64,000 bases of DNA, taken from assembly GCA_937924775.1 (NCBI GenBank), contig CALDUT010000007.1, positions 186,001 to 250,000 of the forward strand, given 5' to 3'. How positions within the stretch are numbered: position 1 is the first letter of the stretch; each line of letters starts with the position of its first letter. Position numbers and translations under genes: made by a program. Positions 52,360 through 60,754 of this stretch are shown one piece after another. The notes below the pieces were generated by a model that was given only the letters and a program-made list of their open reading frames with translations, did not search any database and had not been told where the DNA came from. The DNA comes from an uncultured Gemmata sp. (lineage in GTDB: Bacteria > Planctomycetota > Planctomycetia > Gemmatales > Gemmataceae).

Positions 52360-55227
52360 TCATCCCGCGGACAGGCGAAGCCCGATGGGTAAACTCTCAC
52401 CGAACAGACGCGATTGTTCCTCACTCTCTGGAGCCACCACTTCTTCGACCATCCGTTTCCACGCGCCAGGACACAAATGACTGCGCAGTACGCCTAGCAC
52501 GCGATTGCGTGTTGAATCGCTGACATCGACCGCGCGCAAACCGCTGAGCCGGGCCAGTTGTGAAAGGCAAAATAACCAGCCGTTCTTTTCGCTATCATTG
52601 CCCGGGACAAACGGCAGCAGTTCGGCGATCCACTGTTCCACGATCTCCGGGTGAATGACGGCATTCAACGGGCCGTAAAGTTGCACTCGCGCGCCCAGCC
52701 GGGTGAGCGACCAGAAGGCGTAGGTTGGCACAGGAGATTGCTTGCAGTCGCGCAAGACGGCATGGCCGAGCGCTTCTTTGGTTTTGGCATCGAGCCGCTC
52801 CAAACTGGCCGCGGCCCGCCACATCTCAGCGAATTCATTGGCGGGGGGCCGCGAATATTGCTTCCCTTTCACTGGCAGAAGCACTGGCTTGAGCCGTGTG
52901 AACAATTGCTGCTGTAACGCCGTGTTCAACCCGCCGCTGACGCGTCGCCACATAATCCAATAGTCGGCTCCACCCTCGGGAACCACGGGTCCCTTCTTCG
53001 TCCCCGTGGTGCTGCTGGCCGCCGCAGTGATCAGCTTCCACAACGATTCGACGCGGTAACGATCTAGTGGATCGCCAAAGCCGGGCCGCAGCACAAACCC
53101 CGTGAGGTTGTACCAGCGGGCCAGGTGCTGCGGCGATTTCCCCCGCCCGGCGGCATGGTCTTCGAGAAACTCCCACAAACGACGGCACAAACCCGTGGGC
53201 CACTCCGTTCGGGCCGCTTCCAATACCGTTTCGAGCTGTTTGGGCAACTGGGAAGGTGTGGGAGGCGTTTCACCAGTGGGTGGATTGGCAGAACCGAAGA
53301 CCTGCCGGATCAATTCCCCGGCCGCTTGCACTTTCTCTTCAGGGAATACATCGATGACCGAAGCAGCAGCGGTCTCCCGGGGCTCCTCTGGCGTCGGTTC
53401 GCGCAGCACATCGCGGACGTTGAATTCCAGCCGCCACCGGTTGCCTTCCTTCGATTCACAATACAATTCGAGCGTTCCAATCTCAGTGCATTTGGCTGCC
53501 AGCGTGACCGGAACATGCTTCACACCGGTTCGCTTACCGCCCCGCAAGATCGTGTGCAACGGCGGTAGCCGCAATAGCGATTGCTCTGGCAGCCGTAATA
53601 CCTGGCCCGGCTTATCGTCGCCGCGGACCGTGGAGCTGTACAGCGGAAAGAGGACCGGTTGCCCGAGGGCGAGTTGCAGTACCGGTTCCGGCATGCGTAC
53701 TTCCTCACCCTCTTGCATCCGCCGGGGCACCACACATAACAGCGGAATGCTGTGGGCATGGATGCCGCGGCCTGGGGTGTCGGTTTCAATCGCGATGTAG
53801 TAGGACCGGGGAATCCCACCGCCGATGCGGCGGCCCCCTGAGTGCTTCAACCACGCGAAGTATGCCGCCCCCCACGACACTGCCAGATCAAGCGACGGGC
53901 TGGTCAGAATCAGCGGCTCCCAACTTTTTTCGACTGTGGTGAACCAGGGCCGCATTACCTCGATCACACGTTGCCGTAACACTTCTGGCTGAAAGACTCC
54001 TCCGTTGAAAAGAATGGCATCGATGATGTCGGACCGTGGAGCCGCCGTGGCCACGGTGGTATCGTTTTGAAAGTCGTGCAAATGCTGACGAACGAACGCC
54101 GCCAGATGCTTCGTGATGGCCGGATCGGTCACATAGGGTAACCCCATCTCTTGCAGCCCCAAGCGGACCCCGCGGTTGGGTTGGGCGTCGAGGGGCACCT
54201 GGGGGAAAAAACCTTCAAAAATCGTTTGGCGAACATCGTCGGGTTTGATGTTGACCGACACGGTTCCCCCGACGACCGACCGGCCCTTACCCATCACCGT
54301 GACCGGGTAACTCGGCGGCGACGGATGGGCCAGCAACGCTTCCTTCGCCCCGCGGCAAGCTTGCACCAAGGCCCCGAACTGTGCAGCATCAAGCCGTGAA
54401 CCAGGCAGTTTCGCTTCCACCGCCTTCGCTAATGCGAGGTCCATATTATCGCCGCCCAATAGCAAGTGATCACCGACGGCGTCGCGAAGGAACGTGAGGT
54501 CACCTTTCTCTTCGCCGGCGCGAATCAGGCTGAAGTCGCTGGTGCCACCGCCCACATCGACCACCAAACAACGCATCCCGGGCTTCAGCCGTGCAGCTTC
54601 TTCGGGCGAGTGCGTACCCAACCAGGCGTAGAACGCTGCCTGCGGCTCTTCCAACAGAGTGACGTTGTTCAGCCCTGCAAGCTTGGCCGCTTCGGCCGTC
54701 AGATTCCGGGCCACGTCGTCAAACGACGCCGGGACAGTGACCACCACCTCCTGCGACTCTAGACAATCCGCTGGCTTACGGCCCGGCGTATGATTCCACG
54801 CCTGCACAATGTGCTTGAGGAACTTCGCACTCACTTCTAACGGCGATAAACGCGGTACATCCGGCGGCGCGGCCCAAGGCAGTAACGGTGCCGTGCGATC
54901 GACCCCGGGGTGACACAGCCACGATTTGGCACTCGCAACTTGCCGACCCGGTACTTTCGCGCCATGGTTGCGAGCGAACATCCCGACTGTGTCAGGCGGG
55001 TTCTTCTCCCACGGCAAATCGATCGATCCAGGGGCTAGATCGTGCGGCCCAGGGATATACAGAAATGAGGGAAGCAAGTCGAGTTCTTGCACCTGCCCGG
55101 CAGCGACGACTTGCGGAATCTTGAAGGTATGAAGTTTGGGACCACCGGTGCTGGAACTTGCGGTATCCACATAGGCCACGGCAATGTTGGTGGTTCCCAA
55201 ATCAATGCCAACAAGGTAGCGGGACAT
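52360..55227 (-). CDS. Large Hsp70-family protein with DUF3731-like C-terminus
   Basis: 955 residues. The N-terminal actin-like ATPase shows VGIDLGTTNIAVAYVD, VVVTVPASFDDVARNLTAEA, CLVVDVGGGTSDFSLIR and GGDNMDLALA. It carries insertions, so the ATPase is about 500 residues. The C-terminal 350 residues match the DUF3731 type found in bacterial Hsp70-like pairs (YIAIETDTPGRGIHAHSIPL, WRRVSGGLNTALQQQLF). Such proteins are not general DnaK chaperones; in other bacteria they occur next to a DUF2760 gene and a second Hsp70, neither of which is adjacent here. The role is unknown. It is divergent, with a 28-bp gap, from mfnF. Confidence 0.9.
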   Translation of the reverse strand: MSRYLVGIDLGTTNIAVAYVDTASSSTGGPKLHTFKIPQVVAAGQVQELDLLPSFLYIPGPHDLAPGSIDLPWEKNPPDTVGMFARNHGAKVPGRQVASAKSWLCHPGVDRTAPLLPWAAPPDVPRLSPLEVSAKFLKHIVQAWNHTPGRKPADCLESQEVVVTVPASFDDVARNLTAEAAKLAGLNNVTLLEEPQAAFYAWLGTHSPEEAARLKPGMRCLVVDVGGGTSDFSLIRAGEEKGDLTFLRDAVGDHLLLGGDNMDLALAKAVEAKLPGSRLDAAQFGALVQACRGAKEALLAHPSPPSYPVTVMGKGRSVVGGTVSVNIKPDDVRQTIFEGFFPQVPLDAQPNRGVRLGLQEMGLPYVTDPAITKHLAAFVRQHLHDFQNDTTVATAAPRSDIIDAILFNGGVFQPEVLRQRVIEVMRPWFTTVEKSWEPLILTSPSLDLAVSWGAAYFAWLKHSGGRRIGGGIPRSYYIAIETDTPGRGIHAHSIPLLCVVPRRMQEGEEVRMPEPVLQLALGQPVLFPLYSSTVRGDDKPGQVLRLPEQSLLRLPPLHTILRGGKRTGVKHVPVTLAAKCTEIGTLELYCESKEGNRWRLEFNVRDVLREPTPEEPRETAAASVIDVFPEEKVQAAGELIRQVFGSANPPTGETPPTPSQLPKQLETVLEAARTEWPTGLCRRLWEFLEDHAAGRGKSPQHLARWYNLTGFVLRPGFGDPLDRYRVESLWKLITAAASSTTGTKKGPVVPEGGADYWIMWRRVSGGLNTALQQQLFTRLKPVLLPVKGKQYSRPPANEFAEMWRAAASLERLDAKTKEALGHAVLRDCKQSPVPTYAFWSLTRLGARVQLYGPLNAVIHPEIVEQWIAELLPFVPGNDSEKNGWLFCLSQLARLSGLRAVDVSDSTRNRVLGVLRSHLCPGAWKRMVEEVVAPESEEQSRLFGESLPIGLRLSAG

Positions 55228-55255
55228 TGGGCTAACCTGTATCTATCGTGCGGGA

Positions 55256-56329
55256 ATGATCGCATCCACCATCTTAGGACTGGACATCGGCGGGGCGAAT
55301 CTGAAGGCCGCAAACGCAACCCGGCAGGCTCGTTCCGTTTCGTTTCCGCTATGGAAACAACCCGAGCTACTGCCCACCGCTTTGGCTGGATTGGTCGCCG
55401 CTTTTCCGACTACCGAAGAATTCGCCGTCACCATGACCGGTGAACTGTGCGACTGCTTCCCCACTAAACAGGACGGCGTTCGGGCGATTCTCGCCGCTGT
55501 GGAGGCCGTAGCCCACGGACGACCTGTCCGCATCTGGAGTACTCACGGTGTGTTCCTCAACCGTGCCGACGCCCAGCGGCAACCCCTGACAGTGGCCGCG
55601 GCCAATTGGCACGCCCTGGCCACCTTCGCCGGCCGCTTCGCCCCGCAGGCGGGCGCTCTGCTTCTGGACATCGGCAGTACCACCACCGACATCATTCCGC
55701 TCCATCAGGGTATTCCGTCAACGCATGGCACCACAGATTGGGGTCGCTTGCAGTCCCGGGAATTGGTGTACGTCGGCGTGCGGCGCACACCGATATGCGC
55801 ATTATGGCCCGATCGCGTCTGTGCGGAATTGTTTGCGACCACCCAAGATATTTACACGCTTCTCGGACTATTGCCGGAAGAGCCCACCAATTGCGACACA
55901 GCCGACGGCCGCCCACTCACCACCGCCTACGCTCTGGCCCGGTTGGCCCGCATGCTCGGGGCCGACCGGGACCAACTCTCCGACGATCAAGTGATTCATT
56001 TCGCCACCCGCATTCATACCCGGTTGCTTCAACAACTTGTGGAAGCGGCCCGGCAGGTATATGAGGGTCAGCGTGGCCGGCCGGAATTGAAAACCATCGT
56101 CATCGCGGGAGCCGGAGAATTCCTGGCTCGCCGGGTAGCGGAGAACGCATTCCCCGCGCTATCACCAGAAGCGATCATTTCGCTGACGCAGGAATTGGGG
56201 GCGAGCGTGTCGGCCTGCGCTGCGGCATATGCGGTTGCGATGTTGGCCGTAGAACGTGCCCGCGAGGCGGAGACAGCGGGCCTGTCAATCGTTCCCTCGG
56301 ACGGTGGTGCTAGTCGCAACGAGGGCTAA
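55256..56329 (+). CDS. mfnF: MfnF-like enzyme of methanofuran-type cofactor biosynthesis
   Basis: 357 residues of the hydantoinase/oxoprolinase-like ASKHA fold, TIGR03123 type. The start ILGLDIGGANLKAANA is the phosphate loop; other landmarks are FAVTMTGELCDCFPTKQDGV, ALLLDIGSTTTDIIPL and the C-terminal VIAGAGEFLA. In archaea MfnF couples aminomethylfuran phosphate to tyramine to build the methanofuran core; in bacteria with the tetrahydromethanopterin C1 pathway its homologue makes the related carrier. The next gene encodes the amino-acid-kinase-like MfnE, which makes the diphosphate substrate, supporting the assignment. Start context is weak (GGGA). Confidence 0.85.
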   Translation: MIASTILGLDIGGANLKAANATRQARSVSFPLWKQPELLPTALAGLVAAFPTTEEFAVTMTGELCDCFPTKQDGVRAILAAVEAVAHGRPVRIWSTHGVFLNRADAQRQPLTVAAANWHALATFAGRFAPQAGALLLDIGSTTTDIIPLHQGIPSTHGTTDWGRLQSRELVYVGVRRTPICALWPDRVCAELFATTQDIYTLLGLLPEEPTNCDTADGRPLTTAYALARLARMLGADRDQLSDDQVIHFATRIHTRLLQQLVEAARQVYEGQRGRPELKTIVIAGAGEFLARRVAENAFPALSPEAIISLTQELGASVSACAAAYAVAMLAVERAREAETAGLSIVPSDGGASRNEG

Positions 56330-56354
56330 TGGCAGTGCATATGGGTAACTTCTG

Positions 56355-56990
56355 ATGATTGTAGTAAAAGTCGGTGGCAGTCTGTTCGATCACCCGGCGT
56401 TGGCCCGAGGGCTGCGGGCCTATCTCCGATCACTCCTCGCAGCGTCGCCGGGTTGCCATTCCGTTTCTTCGCCTGATGTGGTCACGGCGGCGGGTCGAGC
56501 CGCCGTGAGCGTTTCTCCTCAAGTGCTGCTTGTGCCCGGGGGCGGGCCTGTCGTCGATGCAGTGCGGCTCTTCGATCGCATCCATCAGCTCGGAGAAGAA
56601 GCGGCGCATTGGCTGGCGTTGCGAGCGCTAACGGTCACCGCGGAATTGCTCCAGCGGCTGCTGGCCGCCGAACCAACGGAAGCGGGGATTGAGCCGTGGC
56701 CGGTTCGCGTCGTCGATGTGTTCGCGTTTGCGCGTGAGGATGAAGAGCGGCCCGATCGGTTGCCGCATGCGTGGCAAGTCACGACCGATTCGCTCGCAGC
56801 TCGGATCGCAGGGGTTTACGGTGCGTCGCAGTTGATCTTGCTGAAATCGATCGACATTCCCCCGGCCACGCCGTGGTCGGAAGCCGCGGCCCGCGGCTGG
56901 GTGGATGAATACTTCCCCCTCATCGCCGCTCAACTCCCCAGCCCCATCGAGACGATCAATTTCCGATCGTGGTTAGAGCGTTTCGCCTAA
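56355..56990 (+). CDS. mfnE: MfnE-like aminomethylfuran phosphate kinase
   Basis: 211 residues with the amino-acid kinase fold: MIVVKVGGSLFDHPALA at the N-terminus (phosphate-binding VVKVGGS), VLLVPGGGPVVDAVRLFD, and the ATP-site segment VTTDSLAARIAGVYGASQLILLKSID. MfnE phosphorylates aminomethylfuran phosphate to the diphosphate used by MfnF. It sits 25 bp after mfnF, an operon order consistent with sequential steps. Planctomycetes are known to hold formaldehyde-oxidation genes of the tetrahydromethanopterin pathway; the rest of the pathway is not in the window. Confidence 0.85.
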   Translation: MIVVKVGGSLFDHPALARGLRAYLRSLLAASPGCHSVSSPDVVTAAGRAAVSVSPQVLLVPGGGPVVDAVRLFDRIHQLGEEAAHWLALRALTVTAELLQRLLAAEPTEAGIEPWPVRVVDVFAFAREDEERPDRLPHAWQVTTDSLAARIAGVYGASQLILLKSIDIPPATPWSEAAARGWVDEYFPLIAAQLPSPIETINFRSWLERFA

Positions 56991-57068
56991 GGCCGCAGGA
57001 TGTTCTATGCTTGGCGCGAACCTTGCCATTCGCTTGTGAAGCTCGCTTCGGGGGAGACGACACGCGCC

Positions 57069-58727
57069 ATGCGCTTCATCATCGCCAACGAATTCTACCA
57101 TCAGATGCAGCAGATGACCGATCACACCCCGGATTGCTACGTTCGCCCGGGGGAGTATTTGCACCATATGTACATCGATGGCGTGAAGTACGTCGTGGCT
57201 CCGGCTGTTCTCGATTGTTTGGCCGAAGCCGAAGCCAAAGGCGACCGCGAAGCCATCGACCATCTGCAATTGCACAAATTGCACTACGAGATGCTGCTGG
57301 CCGATGCCCACCGGGCGGGCACACTCACCGACGAAGTGACGCTCCTCGGCGATGCTCCTCCAACCGATGACGAAGCCATGCCCGTCACCGGCAATGCCTA
57401 TGTGCCCCGGGTGCCCACCTGCTGGGAAGACTTGGGCCTGGATTTGCCCTTGCTTTTTGATCTGGCATTGCGCACAATATATACGCGTGGACACATTACC
57501 GGGGCGGAACTGGCCGAGTCGATGGCGGTTCCCTTCGCGGTGATCAATCCCGTCTTTCAGGCGATGCGGAAGCAATCGCTCGTCGATATTGTGGCCCAGA
57601 AGGGCAACAGCGGCGATGCGAGCTTTGTTTACGCGATCAAACCGCCCAAAGGAGAAGACGCTCTCCGCGACGCCTTGGAGAAAACCAGTTACATCGGTCC
57701 GGTGCCGGTGCCGTTTAGCGATTATGTTGAAGCGGTGATGGCCCAGACAGTGCGCCGGCTGGTGGTGACGCGGCGCAGTATTCGCCGTGCCTTTGAAGAC
57801 CTCATCATCACTGATGAAGTTTTCAACGAAATTGGCCCCGCGATCAACTCGGCGCAGTCGATCTTCTTCTTTGGTTACCCGGGCAATGGCAAAACCAGCA
57901 TCGCTGAACGCATCACCCGGTTGATGGGCGATGCCATCTACGTTCCTTATGCGGTGGAAGCCAATGGGCAGATTATCAAGGTTTACGATCCGATTCAGCA
58001 TACGCTGCTGCCCCACGACGATTTCGCAACGCAGGCGTCGATCACCGAAACGCTGTTGAAACGCGGCCCGCAGTACGATACCCGCTTTGTGCGCGTCAAA
58101 CGGCCGACGATTGTCGTGGGGGGAGAACTGACCCTGCCGATGCTGGACCTCAAATACAACGCGGTCGGTAAGTATTACGAAGCCCCGTTGCAGATGAAAG
58201 CCAACGGCGGCATCTTCATGATCGACGACTTCGGCCGTCAGCAAGTGCGGCCCATGGATTTGCTCAACCGCTGGATTGTTCCCCTGGAGAAGAAATATGA
58301 CTATTTGAACACTATCACAGGAACGAAAATCGAAGTGCCCTTCGATCAGTTGCTGATTTTCAGTACCAATCTCGACCCCAGCCAATTGGCTGACGAAGCC
58401 TTCCTTCGCCGTATCAAGTTCAAGATTGAGATTCGCGACCCCGACGAAGCCCAGTACCGGCGGATTTGGGAGTTGGTCTGTCAGAGTCGCCGCGTGGAAT
58501 ACGACGTCCGCGGCATCGACTATCTGATTCAGAAGTGGTACAAGCCGCACAATCGGCCGTTCCGTATGTGCCAGCCCCGCGACATTCTCGACCAGATGAT
58601 GAGTATTGCCAAGTACAATATGGAACGTGTGAACTTCAGCCCCGACTTGATCGACGCGGCCTGCTCCACCTACTTCATCAACACCAATAACAAGAAGGAC
58701 TTTGGTGCGAAGGTACAAATGCAGTAG
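57069..58727 (+). CDS. AAA-type ATPase of unknown role
   Basis: About 552 residues from the ATG at 57069; an ATG at 57000 would add 23 residues. N-terminal 200 residues are a soluble, helical and winged-helix-like region (GVKYVVAPAVLDCLAEAEAK, HITGAELAESMAVPFAVINP). The ATPase follows: Walker A GYPGNGKTSIAERI, Walker B GIFMIDDFGRQQVRP, and a sensor-like FSTNLDPSQLADEAFLRRIK. Family resemblance is to bacterial MoxR/RuvB-like ATPases with an IDDFGR signature. A helical segment DPDEAQYRRIWELVCQ lies at the lid. It follows mfnE by 78 bp in the same direction. Partner unknown. Confidence 0.8.
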   Translation: MRFIIANEFYHQMQQMTDHTPDCYVRPGEYLHHMYIDGVKYVVAPAVLDCLAEAEAKGDREAIDHLQLHKLHYEMLLADAHRAGTLTDEVTLLGDAPPTDDEAMPVTGNAYVPRVPTCWEDLGLDLPLLFDLALRTIYTRGHITGAELAESMAVPFAVINPVFQAMRKQSLVDIVAQKGNSGDASFVYAIKPPKGEDALRDALEKTSYIGPVPVPFSDYVEAVMAQTVRRLVVTRRSIRRAFEDLIITDEVFNEIGPAINSAQSIFFFGYPGNGKTSIAERITRLMGDAIYVPYAVEANGQIIKVYDPIQHTLLPHDDFATQASITETLLKRGPQYDTRFVRVKRPTIVVGGELTLPMLDLKYNAVGKYYEAPLQMKANGGIFMIDDFGRQQVRPMDLLNRWIVPLEKKYDYLNTITGTKIEVPFDQLLIFSTNLDPSQLADEAFLRRIKFKIEIRDPDEAQYRRIWELVCQSRRVEYDVRGIDYLIQKWYKPHNRPFRMCQPRDILDQMMSIAKYNMERVNFSPDLIDAACSTYFINTNNKKDFGAKVQMQ

Positions 58728-58953
58728 CGGCCGGTCGTCGTGAATGAGGGCTTCGGAAACGCCTCCCCGTTCTGCCGGCCTGTTGTCGAGGGGTCGCCCC
58801 TTCCGGTTCGTCATTGCGGGCACGGTATTCGTTGCCTTCGACACACCGATTCGATGTGGAAACACCGCCGGCTTGAGCGGCCGGCTGTCGCGGCTGGCTT
58901 CCCTCTTCTCCGCGCTACCGGGCTGTAGCATGATGGCGAAGGGAGGCTTCGCT

Positions 58954-60135
58954 TTGCCAACACCGACACCAGCATCATCGGCGTTAGCCACCCGCTTGAA
59001 AGCCCAAGCGGTGCAATGTGGCTTTGCCCTCGTCGGTATTGCCCCGGCGACCGAAGCCGATGGTTTTGCTCATTTTCGCGAATGGCTCGATCGCGGGTAT
59101 GCCGGCGAGATGGCTTACTTGCACAAGCGGGCAGAAGCCCGTCGTCACCCTCAGAGCATTTTGGCGGGGGTGCGGAGCGTGGTGATGGTGGCCATGGAGT
59201 ACCGCGGCTCAAGGAGGCCAGAAGAGCCGGCCACTGCGGCGGGGGATTCTGCAGCCCTGGCCACTGTTTCTTCCGCTGCGCCGGTGCGTGCGCGGGTGGC
59301 GAAATACGCGCAAGGACCGGACTATCACCCGGTGATGTGGGGCCGCCTCAAAACCTTGGCGGCGTGGCTGGAAGGCGAAGTGCCGGGGTGCCATACCGCC
59401 GCCGTCACCGATACGGCCCCCCTCCTGGAACGCGACTTCGCCCGCCGCGCAGGGCTGGGTTGGATGGGCAAAAACACGATGCTCATTCATCCCCGTCGCG
59501 GCAGCTTCTTTTTTCTGGGAGCGTTGCTGACCGATTGCGAGCTGCCGCCCGACGAACCGTTTCGGCCCGTCCACTGCGGCACTTGTACTGCTTGTTTACA
59601 GGCCTGTCCGACCCAGGCGTTCCCCGAACCGTTCATCCTTGATGCGACCAAGTGCATCAGCTATCTGACCATCGAATTACGATCGTCGATTCCCCCTCAG
59701 TACCGGGAAGCGATGGGCGATTGGCTGTTCGGGTGCGACATCTGCCAGGATGTATGCCCGTGGAACCGCCGCCGCTTTTGGCGCGACGAATCGCAACAAC
59801 CTTCGCACCCTGAAACGCGCCGGGAGGAAGTCCCGTTTCCCCACGACCCGGACTTGGAATGGCTCGACCCGATCGAGTTACTGAACTACGATGCAGACAA
59901 CTTTCGCCAACGTTTCAAGAAAACGTCCTTGTGGCGAAGCCGTCGCACCGGACTTCTCCGCAATGCCGCGATTGTGTTGGGGAATATCGGCGATGAACGG
60001 GCCCTGCCAGCGTTGGAAAAGGCTGTGCGTGACGAAGACGAAGTGATCCGCGAAGCCGCAGCTTGGGCCATCGAACGCATCCGTCAGCGAACCTCGAGCG
60101 TGTACTCGGGGTTGCCGTCGGCTCCGGTGGATTGA
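58954..60135 (+). CDS. queG: Epoxyqueuosine reductase
   Basis: About 393 residues from a TTG at 58954, which has AAGGGAGG ideally spaced and gives the normal N-terminus (LPTPTPASSALATRLKAQA). ATGs at 58930 and 58933 are alternatives. The cobalamin-binding reductase core includes RDFARRAGLGWMGKNTMLI. The two [4Fe-4S] clusters are in CGTCTACLQACPTQAF and CDICQDVCPWN. The C-terminus has HEAT-like repeats (ALPALEKAVRDEDEVIREAA) that bind tRNA. QueG performs the last step of queuosine synthesis in tRNA. The 3' end overlaps the tail of the convergent Uma2 pseudogene by 52 bp. Confidence 0.92.
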   Translation: MPTPTPASSALATRLKAQAVQCGFALVGIAPATEADGFAHFREWLDRGYAGEMAYLHKRAEARRHPQSILAGVRSVVMVAMEYRGSRRPEEPATAAGDSAALATVSSAAPVRARVAKYAQGPDYHPVMWGRLKTLAAWLEGEVPGCHTAAVTDTAPLLERDFARRAGLGWMGKNTMLIHPRRGSFFFLGALLTDCELPPDEPFRPVHCGTCTACLQACPTQAFPEPFILDATKCISYLTIELRSSIPPQYREAMGDWLFGCDICQDVCPWNRRRFWRDESQQPSHPETRREEVPFPHDPDLEWLDPIELLNYDADNFRQRFKKTSLWRSRRTGLLRNAAIVLGNIGDERALPALEKAVRDEDEVIREAAAWAIERIRQRTSSVYSGLPSAPVD

Positions 60136-60754
60136 GTGAAACGAAACGATCGACTCAACACGGCCGATTTCGCCCATCCCCCCGACTTACGCACTGACAC
60201 GAACTCTTTTGGACCCCGTTTATCGATGTGAAACTCCACCGCGGACCGGCGGCGGGCATTGAAGAGCCAATATTCGCTAATCCCGGCATCGTAGTAGGCC
60301 GCCAGCGCCCACTCACAATCCGCGATTTCGGAACGTTCGCTGACGATTTCAATGATAATGTCGGCAGAACCAATCAGTTTGGTTTTGCGGCCTTCGCCGC
60401 CGCCAACCAACCGCACCCGCTCCTCGCGAAAGGCCTGATGCGAAACCACCATGCCATCGGGTTTAGTGGACAGCTCCGTTGCCGGGTGATTGTAGCGTAT
60501 ACATACCGTCAGGGATATAGCGACCGAATTGGGTTTGCTTCATGAGAAAGAACTGCGCCAATTTCCGCTTGGACCACATTATGGCTGAAGAAATCTTCGA
60601 TGCTCAGGTCCACCCAAACGTGGCGATTGATGAAGCAGATTTTTCCTTCGTCGGGGAAGCTGTCGGAATGAAACCAACGGCGAGAGGAAGGAAAATCGGT
60701 GACCCACGCGGGAATCGTGATCGGACCTTTGCTGGTTGCGGAAATCGTCGCCAC
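60084..60754 (-). pseudogene. Frameshifted Uma2-family (DUF820) nuclease-like gene
   Basis: The Uma2 pattern is spread over three frames. The N-terminus from 60754 ends VVQAEIGAVLSHEA before a shift. KQTQFGRYIPDGMYT lies in a second frame, and NHPATELSTKPDGMVVSHQAF in the third, continuing to the end with DIIIEIVSERSEIADCEWAL and YYDAGISEYWLF. Two frameshifts (about 60535 and 60485) therefore break a gene of about 215 codons. Uma2 proteins have a PD-(D/E)xK nuclease-like fold and are abundant in planctomycetes. A sequencing error is possible, but two in 60 bp is unlikely. Confidence 0.8.

What the first reader, a model, noticed from the sequence alone, without database searches (positions are those of the whole stretch)
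55256..56990. mfnF-mfnE pair: methanofuran-type C1 carrier synthesis in a planctomycete
Both genes show the family signatures and are adjacent in the same direction. They make the aminomethylfuran part of methanofuran-like carriers. This points to a tetrahydromethanopterin-linked formaldehyde pathway, known in some planctomycetes, but the physiological use is poorly understood. An AAA ATPase follows in the same direction and may be co-transcribed.
Basis: partly seen in the sequence, partly recalled or inferred. Interest (0 to 1): 0.55.

Follow-up and report, generated by a model that had tools for sequence, protein, structure and literature searches.

The report
Methylofuran coenzyme genes mfnF and mfnE
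Two neighbouring genes of a planctomycete bacterium look like the enzymes that activate and join the furan part of a one-carbon carrier coenzyme; much of that formaldehyde-oxidation pathway is in the same genome, so the pair is real but of a known kind.

Summary
mfnF (55256-56329, +) scores 282.9 bits against TIGR03123 (cut-off 244.1). mfnE (56355-56990, +) is weak by profile (38.5 bits; NF040622 cut-off 300), but its closest solved relative, by sequence and by predicted fold, is MfnE of Methanococcus vannielii (7qrh, Z 18.8).

Among 195 genomes of the phylum, mch occurs in 33; full-length mfnF occurs in those 33 only. One near-complete relative, G040, lacks every gene sought. In some planctomycetes mfnF-mfnE clusters with mch, fhcD and mfnB.

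So the pair most likely does the last two core steps of methylofuran synthesis for H4MPT-linked formaldehyde oxidation, already reported for planctomycetes. Corrections: the pair activates and couples the aminomethylfuran rather than making it; the dehydrogenase is probably MtdC; the AAA ATPase is not a conserved neighbour. One oddity: palindromic repeats have entered mfnE in Gemmata relatives and interrupt its frame in two.

The parts
55256..56329 (+). mfnF (TIGR03123 family): probable ligase that joins F1-PP to the Glu-tyrosine/tyramine part of methylofuran
   Evidence: 282.9 bits to TIGR03123 (cut-off 244.1); nearest solved chain 3c0b/3cet, E 9.2e-38; most residues of its nucleotide-binding motifs invariant in 16 aligned sequences
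56355..56990 (+). mfnE-like kinase (amino-acid-kinase fold): probable [5-(aminomethyl)furan-3-yl]methyl phosphate kinase
   Evidence: NF040622 38.5 bits, below cut-off; model pLDDT 91.1; best solved match M. vannielii MfnE 7qrh, Z 18.8, rmsd 2.4 over 167 residues; 15 positions invariant in 36 sequences, among them K5, G62-G64, D145, K164
56445..56522 (+). stretch of mfnE (aa 31-56) that holds a 25-residue insert, shared in full only with the nearest relative; low-confidence loop in the model
   Evidence: alignments A1 and A3; pLDDT 58 and 51 for residues 31-40 and 41-50

Best explanation
The pair encodes the last two core-assembly steps of methylofuran, the formyl-carrying coenzyme of the H4MPT pathway. 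MfnE uses ATP to turn the aminomethylfuran phosphate (F1-P) into the pyrophosphate F1-PP; MfnF then displaces the pyrophosphate with the phenol of Glu-tyramine or Glu-tyrosine. The carrier is then glutamylated by ligases and used by the formyltransferase/hydrolase complex to release formate from formyl-H4MPT, completing formaldehyde oxidation begun by Fae, Mtd(C) and Mch. Shown here: the genes, their families, their conserved adjacency, other pathway genes in the same genome and strict co-occurrence of mfnF with mch in a sample of the phylum. Inferred: the chemical activities (from work on archaeal enzymes and on M. extorquens/M. flagellatus; the details of the two reactions are partly recalled), that methylofuran is made, and that the role is formaldehyde oxidation or detoxification.
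For: mfnF over the TIGR03123 cut-off; mfnE's closest solved structure is MfnE itself, Z 18.8 against 15.6 for the next. Pathway genes in G000: mch C4, fae on C1 with an Mtd-type gene beside it, fhcD on C1 and C4, fhcA C11 at 693.8 bits, mfnB C19 at 183.3 bits, beta-RFAP-synthase relative C13 at 80.9 bits. Own mch neighbours: an ATP-grasp ligase (MptN/RimK type), CitG-like, PTPS and ATP-grasp_3 genes. Co-occurrence: full-length mfnF in 33 of 33 genomes with mch and 0 of 162 without. G040 (99% complete) has no match to mfnF, mfnE, mch, fae, fhcD, mfnB, Mtd or beta-RFAPS and no over-cut-off fhcA. mfnB lies directly beside mfnE in 6 of 41 genomes. Clusters: fhcD-mch-ligase-CitG-mfnF-mfnE-mfnB in L117; mch-ligase-CitG-PTPS and, about 1.8 kb on, mfnF-mfnE in L136; mfnF-mfnE facing CitG-ligase-mch in L075. 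Controls: TIGR03123 rings in 2 of 14 named control genomes, both methanogens; mch in 3, all archaea.
Against: mfnE and mfnF are both below the cut-offs of the NCBI equivalogs NF040622 and NF040623, so substrate identity is not guaranteed by profile. The beta-RFAP-synthase match in G000 is below the family cut-off (80.9 of 113.5), and only 11 of 41 genomes pass it. Invariant K164-S165 of the planctomycete kinases faces T-D in 7qrh. In G000 the other pathway genes found lie on other contigs, not beside the pair. In 9 of 39 genomes the two genes are apart. Some relatives lack single genes, mostly in incomplete bins, but G028 (93% complete) has no match to fae or Mtd. fhcB, fhcC, MfnC, MfnD and MyfA were not sought, and Orf21/Orf9 of M. 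extorquens were not compared by sequence.
Confidence: 0.93

Rival explanations
1. The pair belongs to another pathway: MfnF would be a hydantoinase-type ATPase of unknown substrate and MfnE a kinase of another small phosphate (for example of the UMP-kinase type).
For: Both proteins fall below the NCBI equivalog cut-offs; Pfam sees only Hydantoinase_A and AA_kinase. UMP kinases are the next structural matches of MfnE, Z 15.6.
Against: Co-occurrence with mch (33 of 33 against 0 of 162), clusters with mfnB, mch and fhcD, joint absence in G040, and MfnE itself as the best solved match.
Confidence: 0.04
2. mfnF-mfnE-AAA is a three-gene functional unit, with the AAA ATPase acting on the coenzyme or its enzymes.
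For: In the window the AAA ORF as listed starts 9 nt after mfnE on the same strand, and no terminator-like site was found between them; the order recurs in 8 loci of the genus (L014, L017, L024, L025, L026, L032, L038, L039).
Against: In 80 named loci the AAA gene follows in only 3 (L060, L065, L066; a few loci end too soon to tell); four loci of the same genus with more than 800 nt after mfnE show no match (L016, L020, L029, L033). Its weak family matches are to IetA-type ATPases.
Confidence: 0.03

Closest known systems
Archaeal MfnE / MfnF of methanofuran synthesis (M. vannielii MfnE 7qrh; 3c0b/3cet for the MfnF family)
   Same: Best sequence and structural match of MfnE; only solved relative of MfnF found by sequence
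   Different: Below the NF040622/NF040623 cut-offs; the genes are adjacent in a bacterium; 25-aa insert in MfnE; K164-S165 in place of T-D
Orf21 (MfnE) and Orf9 (MfnF) of the 'archaeal-like' cluster of Methylorubrum extorquens (PMC8141765, passages)
   Same: Same pathway role proposed; the genome here also holds mch, fae and fhc genes
   Different: Not compared by sequence here; in the window genome the pathway genes found lie on six contigs (C1, C4, C7, C11, C13, C19) rather than in one cluster
H4MPT/methanofuran C1 genes of Planctomycetes (PMC5020050, part 1 of 3 of the text; PMC3505017, passages)
   Same: The pathway is already reported in planctomycetes
   Different: Nothing essential; this genome is one more member

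Membership tests
TIGR03123 (MfnF / Orf9 family) | Score over curated cut-off, full-length | tested here: met
   282.9 bits against a cut-off of 244.1, positions 1-326 of 327
NF040623 MfnF equivalog | Score over curated cut-off | tested here: not met
   193.4 of 520 bits; so filed under TIGR03123, not under this equivalog
NF040622 MfnE equivalog | Score over curated cut-off | tested here: not met
   38.5 of 300 bits, residues 53-97; so described as an MfnE-like kinase, not filed under this equivalog
MfnE by fold | Amino-acid-kinase fold closest to solved MfnE | tested here: met
   7qrh first by Foldseek and by VIA-align 2, Z 18.8, 167 residues, 2.4 A; next Z 15.6
MfnE / MfnF enzymes | F1-P kinase and F1-PP:Glu-tyramine/tyrosine ligase activities | not testable with these tools
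   needs assays
H4MPT/methylofuran formaldehyde pathway | fae, mtd, mch, fhcA, fhcD in the same genome | tested here: met
H4MPT/methylofuran formaldehyde pathway | fhcB and fhcC | not tested
   genome searches (12 of 12) were used for other families
Methylofuran synthesis | mfnB (4-HFC-P synthase) in the genome | tested here: met
   G000:C19:81265-81930, 183.3 bits, cut-off 22.4
Methylofuran synthesis | transaminase MfnC, MfnD or tyrosine ligase, MyfA | not tested
   no specific search made; ATP-grasp genes beside mch are candidates only

The most novel reading that the evidence does not exclude
In Gemmata, palindromic GTAG-type repeats (REP-like) settle in one loop of mfnE, between what I take to be its acceptor-side half and its ATP-binding half. 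In several carriers they are read in frame; in Gemmata sp. IIL30 the frame holds stop codons, and in G002 the two halves are in different frames around an insert with an 11-base C run. The bold reading is that MfnE is there made as two separately translated halves, or switched on and off by slippage, so that a kinase of a core coenzyme pathway tolerates repeat invasion. Sequencing or assembly error, or a decayed gene, is the plainer account.
Probability: 0.1. Interest if true: 0.45.

Novelty: new member of a known kind. Interest (0 to 1): 0.22.

Why it matters
The strict link of mfnF with mch in a sample of the phylum makes mfnF a usable marker for the pathway in planctomycetes, and the joint absence in one near-complete genome suggests loss as a unit. 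What the planctomycetes use the pathway for is still open and needs experiments.

Tried and rejected
Rejected: an orphan pair with another substrate (pathway genes present). Rejected: the AAA ATPase as a conserved third member. Looked at and left: weak matches of the AAA protein to IetA-type defence ATPases and phage families and to spastin, all over short stretches. The sub-threshold TIGR03123 match in G130 (67 residues, 21.6 bits) was not counted as mfnF; that in G086 (positions 1-325, 235.6 bits, just under the cut-off) was counted. The promoter and terminator scan of 55000-60500 stayed within the spread of its shuffles (1 against 2.1, sd 1.6; 6 against 5.0, sd 2.4). TIGR03121 (fhcA) rings in 11 of 14 control genomes but passes its cut-off in 2 only, so only over-cut-off matches were counted (36 of 41 genomes). 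Paper listings on planctomycetes or Gemmata with H4MPT terms served to find earlier reports of the pathway; one listing on palindromic repeats with Gemmata showed no title on repeats in genes of the bacterium Gemmata among the 10 listed of 1,617. PMC4807772 was searched for pathway terms and gave a reference-list passage only.

Rows dropped before counts or alignments: L025 left out of alignment A2 because my coordinates ran through a stop (redone); a fae fragment left out of the Pfam scan for the same reason (redone). Alignment A1 used 18 of the 24 mfnE loci (L021, L032, L034, L036, L038, L039, cut off, interrupted or with long inserts, were left out). Alignment A3 used 35 of the 44 loci with adjacent mfnE: L061 and L065 matched in two pieces, L068 and L112 were partial, L085 lies in the same arrangement as L083, and L069, L070, L072 and L098 were left out for no special reason. 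L060 and L025 are the same DNA, and L136 holds the same DNA as L040, so they are not independent.

Full report
What is there. The window (64 kb) is G000:C7:186001-250000 of a 4.79 Mb genome in 27 contigs (97% complete). The nearest named relative of its mfnF in the scan is from a Gemmata sp. metagenome bin (L060, 73% identity; records of the window's own genome may be left out there), so a planctomycete of the family Gemmataceae is likely. Two + strand ORFs sit at 55256-56329 and 56355-56990. Upstream and divergent is a DnaK-related DUF3731 gene with 28 nt between the two start codons as listed. Downstream follow an ATPase and queG.

mfnF. TIGR03123 282.9 bits (cut-off 244.1), NF040623 193.4 bits (cut-off 520). 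The only solved relative found by sequence is the archaeal protein 3c0b/3cet, aligned over query residues 6-331. In 16 aligned planctomycete proteins most residues of the DIGGAN, DIGSTTTD and TADG motifs are invariant or nearly so.

mfnE. The profile match alone is weak: NF040622 38.5 of 300 bits, AA_kinase 28.1 bits. I therefore modelled it from 36 aligned sequences: mean pLDDT 91.1, pTM 0.87, with one loose loop at residues 31-50 and a milder dip at 101-120. Foldseek and VIA-align 2 both rank the solved MfnE of Methanococcus vannielii first (E 2.8e-9; Z 18.8, 2.4 A over 167 residues), ahead of UMP kinases at Z 15.6. Fifteen positions are invariant across the 36 sequences, among them K5, G62-G63-G64, D145 and K164. 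K164-S165 replace T-D of the archaeal protein, a difference whose meaning I cannot judge. A 25-residue insert within aa 31-56 is shared in full only with the nearest relative (L025 in A1 and L060 in A3, which are the same DNA); L073 has 10 residues there, the other rows of A1 and A3 one to three.

The rest of the pathway. In the window's genome I found mch, fae with an Mtd-type dehydrogenase gene beside it, two fhcD, fhcA, mfnB and a beta-RFAP-synthase relative below its cut-off. The own mch sits with an ATP-grasp ligase (best match MptN_Meth, 232.4 of 350 bits; Pfam RimK), a CitG-like gene, a PTPS gene and an ATP-grasp_3 gene. By PMC8141765 (passages) Orf22, Orf21 and Orf9 of M. extorquens are homologues of MfnB, MfnE and MfnF, and Orf5 (MyfB) elongates the glutamate chain; that Orf5 is RimK-like and that Orf5 and a CitG-like Orf7 follow mch there is recalled, not looked up. 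fhcB, fhcC, MfnC, MfnD, MyfA and methanol dehydrogenase were not searched.

Counts among 41 genomes (own included): mch 39, mfnF 39, mfnE 39, the same 39 as mfnF, fae 38, fhcD 40, mfnB 40, Mtd 37, fhcA over cut-off 36, beta-RFAP synthase 38, of which 11 over cut-off. Some of these matches are fragments at contig ends. Single absences fall mostly in bins under 90% complete; exceptions are G028 (93%; no fae, no Mtd) and, for fhcA, G003 and G030. G040 (99% complete, one contig) has no match to any of them and no over-cut-off fhcA. In a sample of 195 genomes of the phylum (drawn with a completeness of 90% or more), mch is in 33 and full-length mfnF in exactly those 33, 32 of them over the cut-off. 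Twenty-six of the 33 belong to the window's class, so they are not independent events; 7 lie outside it. In G158 and G143 mfnF and mch are about 2.8 and 6.4 kb apart on one contig.

Neighbourhoods. mfnE directly follows mfnF in 30 of 39 genomes (not in G014, G020, G024, G028, G029, G033, G034, G038, G039) and in 44 of 80 named loci. mfnB lies convergently beside mfnE in 6 of 41 genomes (G019, G020, G024, G025, G026, G027) and in 7 of 80 named loci (L071, L074, L078, L087, L102, L117, L132). L117, L136 and L075 join mfnF-mfnE to mch and its ligase neighbours, and L113 joins mfnF to the ligase and CitG-like genes. The DUF3731 gene is divergent and upstream in 16 of the 80; the AAA gene follows in 3.

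Mechanism. From the cited pathway (PMC8141765, passages): MfnB, a transaminase and MfnE give F1-PP; MfnF ligates it to the Glu-tyrosine/tyramine part; MyfA and MyfB add glutamates. The carrier serves the formyltransferase/hydrolase complex, which generates formate. Present and co-inherited genes are shown here; the enzyme activities and the coenzyme are inferred.

Known or new. H4MPT/methanofuran genes in planctomycetes are already reported (PMC5020050, part 1 of 3 of the text; PMC3505017, passages, which also names the planctomycete dehydrogenase MtdC). This is a new member of a known kind.

Side result. In congeners, mfnE carries inserts in one loop (window aa about 104-117) made of inverted C/G-rich repeats: L014, L016, L017, L021, L032, L034, L038, L039. 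In L017, L021, L032, L034, L038 and L039 at least one end reads GTAG (or its complement); L014 and L016 have close variants. The frame runs through the insert in L014, L016, L017, L021 and L038; L034 ends within it. The L032 insert folds far better than its shuffles (z -11.3), L016 and L017 less so (z -2.8 and -1.7). GTAG-tagged REPs, some inside genes, and REP families in planctomycetes are described in PMC3733652 (passages). In Gemmata sp. IIL30 (L065, identical to L039 over 846 bases) the mfnE frame holds stop codons within the insert; in L032 (G002) the two halves are in different frames. The window's mfnE has no such insert, and the repeat core I searched for occurs 0 times in the window.

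Noticed in passing
L014, L016, L017, L021, L032, L034, L038, L039 (mfnE of congeners): GTAG-type palindromic repeats (or close variants) inserted in one loop of mfnE; read in frame as proline/glycine-rich segments in five of the eight.
   Followed up: partly
L065:7110-7949 (Gemmata sp. IIL30) and L032:2577-3260 (G002): mfnE interrupted inside the repeat insert: stop codons in the first, different frames for the two halves in the second; no other mfnE copy was found in G010 (same DNA as L065 here) and G002.
   Followed up: partly
G000:C1:314792-315655 and G000:C4:176332-177246: Two divergent fhcD paralogues in the window's genome; 20 of 41 genomes show two matches. Why two formyltransferases are kept is unexplained.
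   Followed up: no
L008:10327-11511 (-): ATP-grasp_3 protein directly upstream of mch, seen also in 3 of the 12 other genomes whose mch locus was fetched (37-53% identity); a candidate glutamate ligase of coenzyme synthesis.
   Followed up: partly
mfnF of the window's genus: mfnF of the 16 congener loci compared falls in two identity groups to the window (6 at 63-73%, 10 at 48-54%) at the same place in the genome, as if replaced by recombination in part of the genus.
   Followed up: no
52360-55256: DUF3731/DnaK-related gene divergent from mfnF with 28 nt between start codons, an order kept in 16 of 80 named loci.
   Followed up: partly
57000-58727: ATPase of 575 aa with no Pfam match at E 0.001; weak short matches to IetA-type anti-phage ATPases.
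   Followed up: partly
G040 (unnamed relative, 99% complete): A planctomycete of the same class without a match to any of the H4MPT/methylofuran genes sought (fhcA: none over cut-off).
   Followed up: partly
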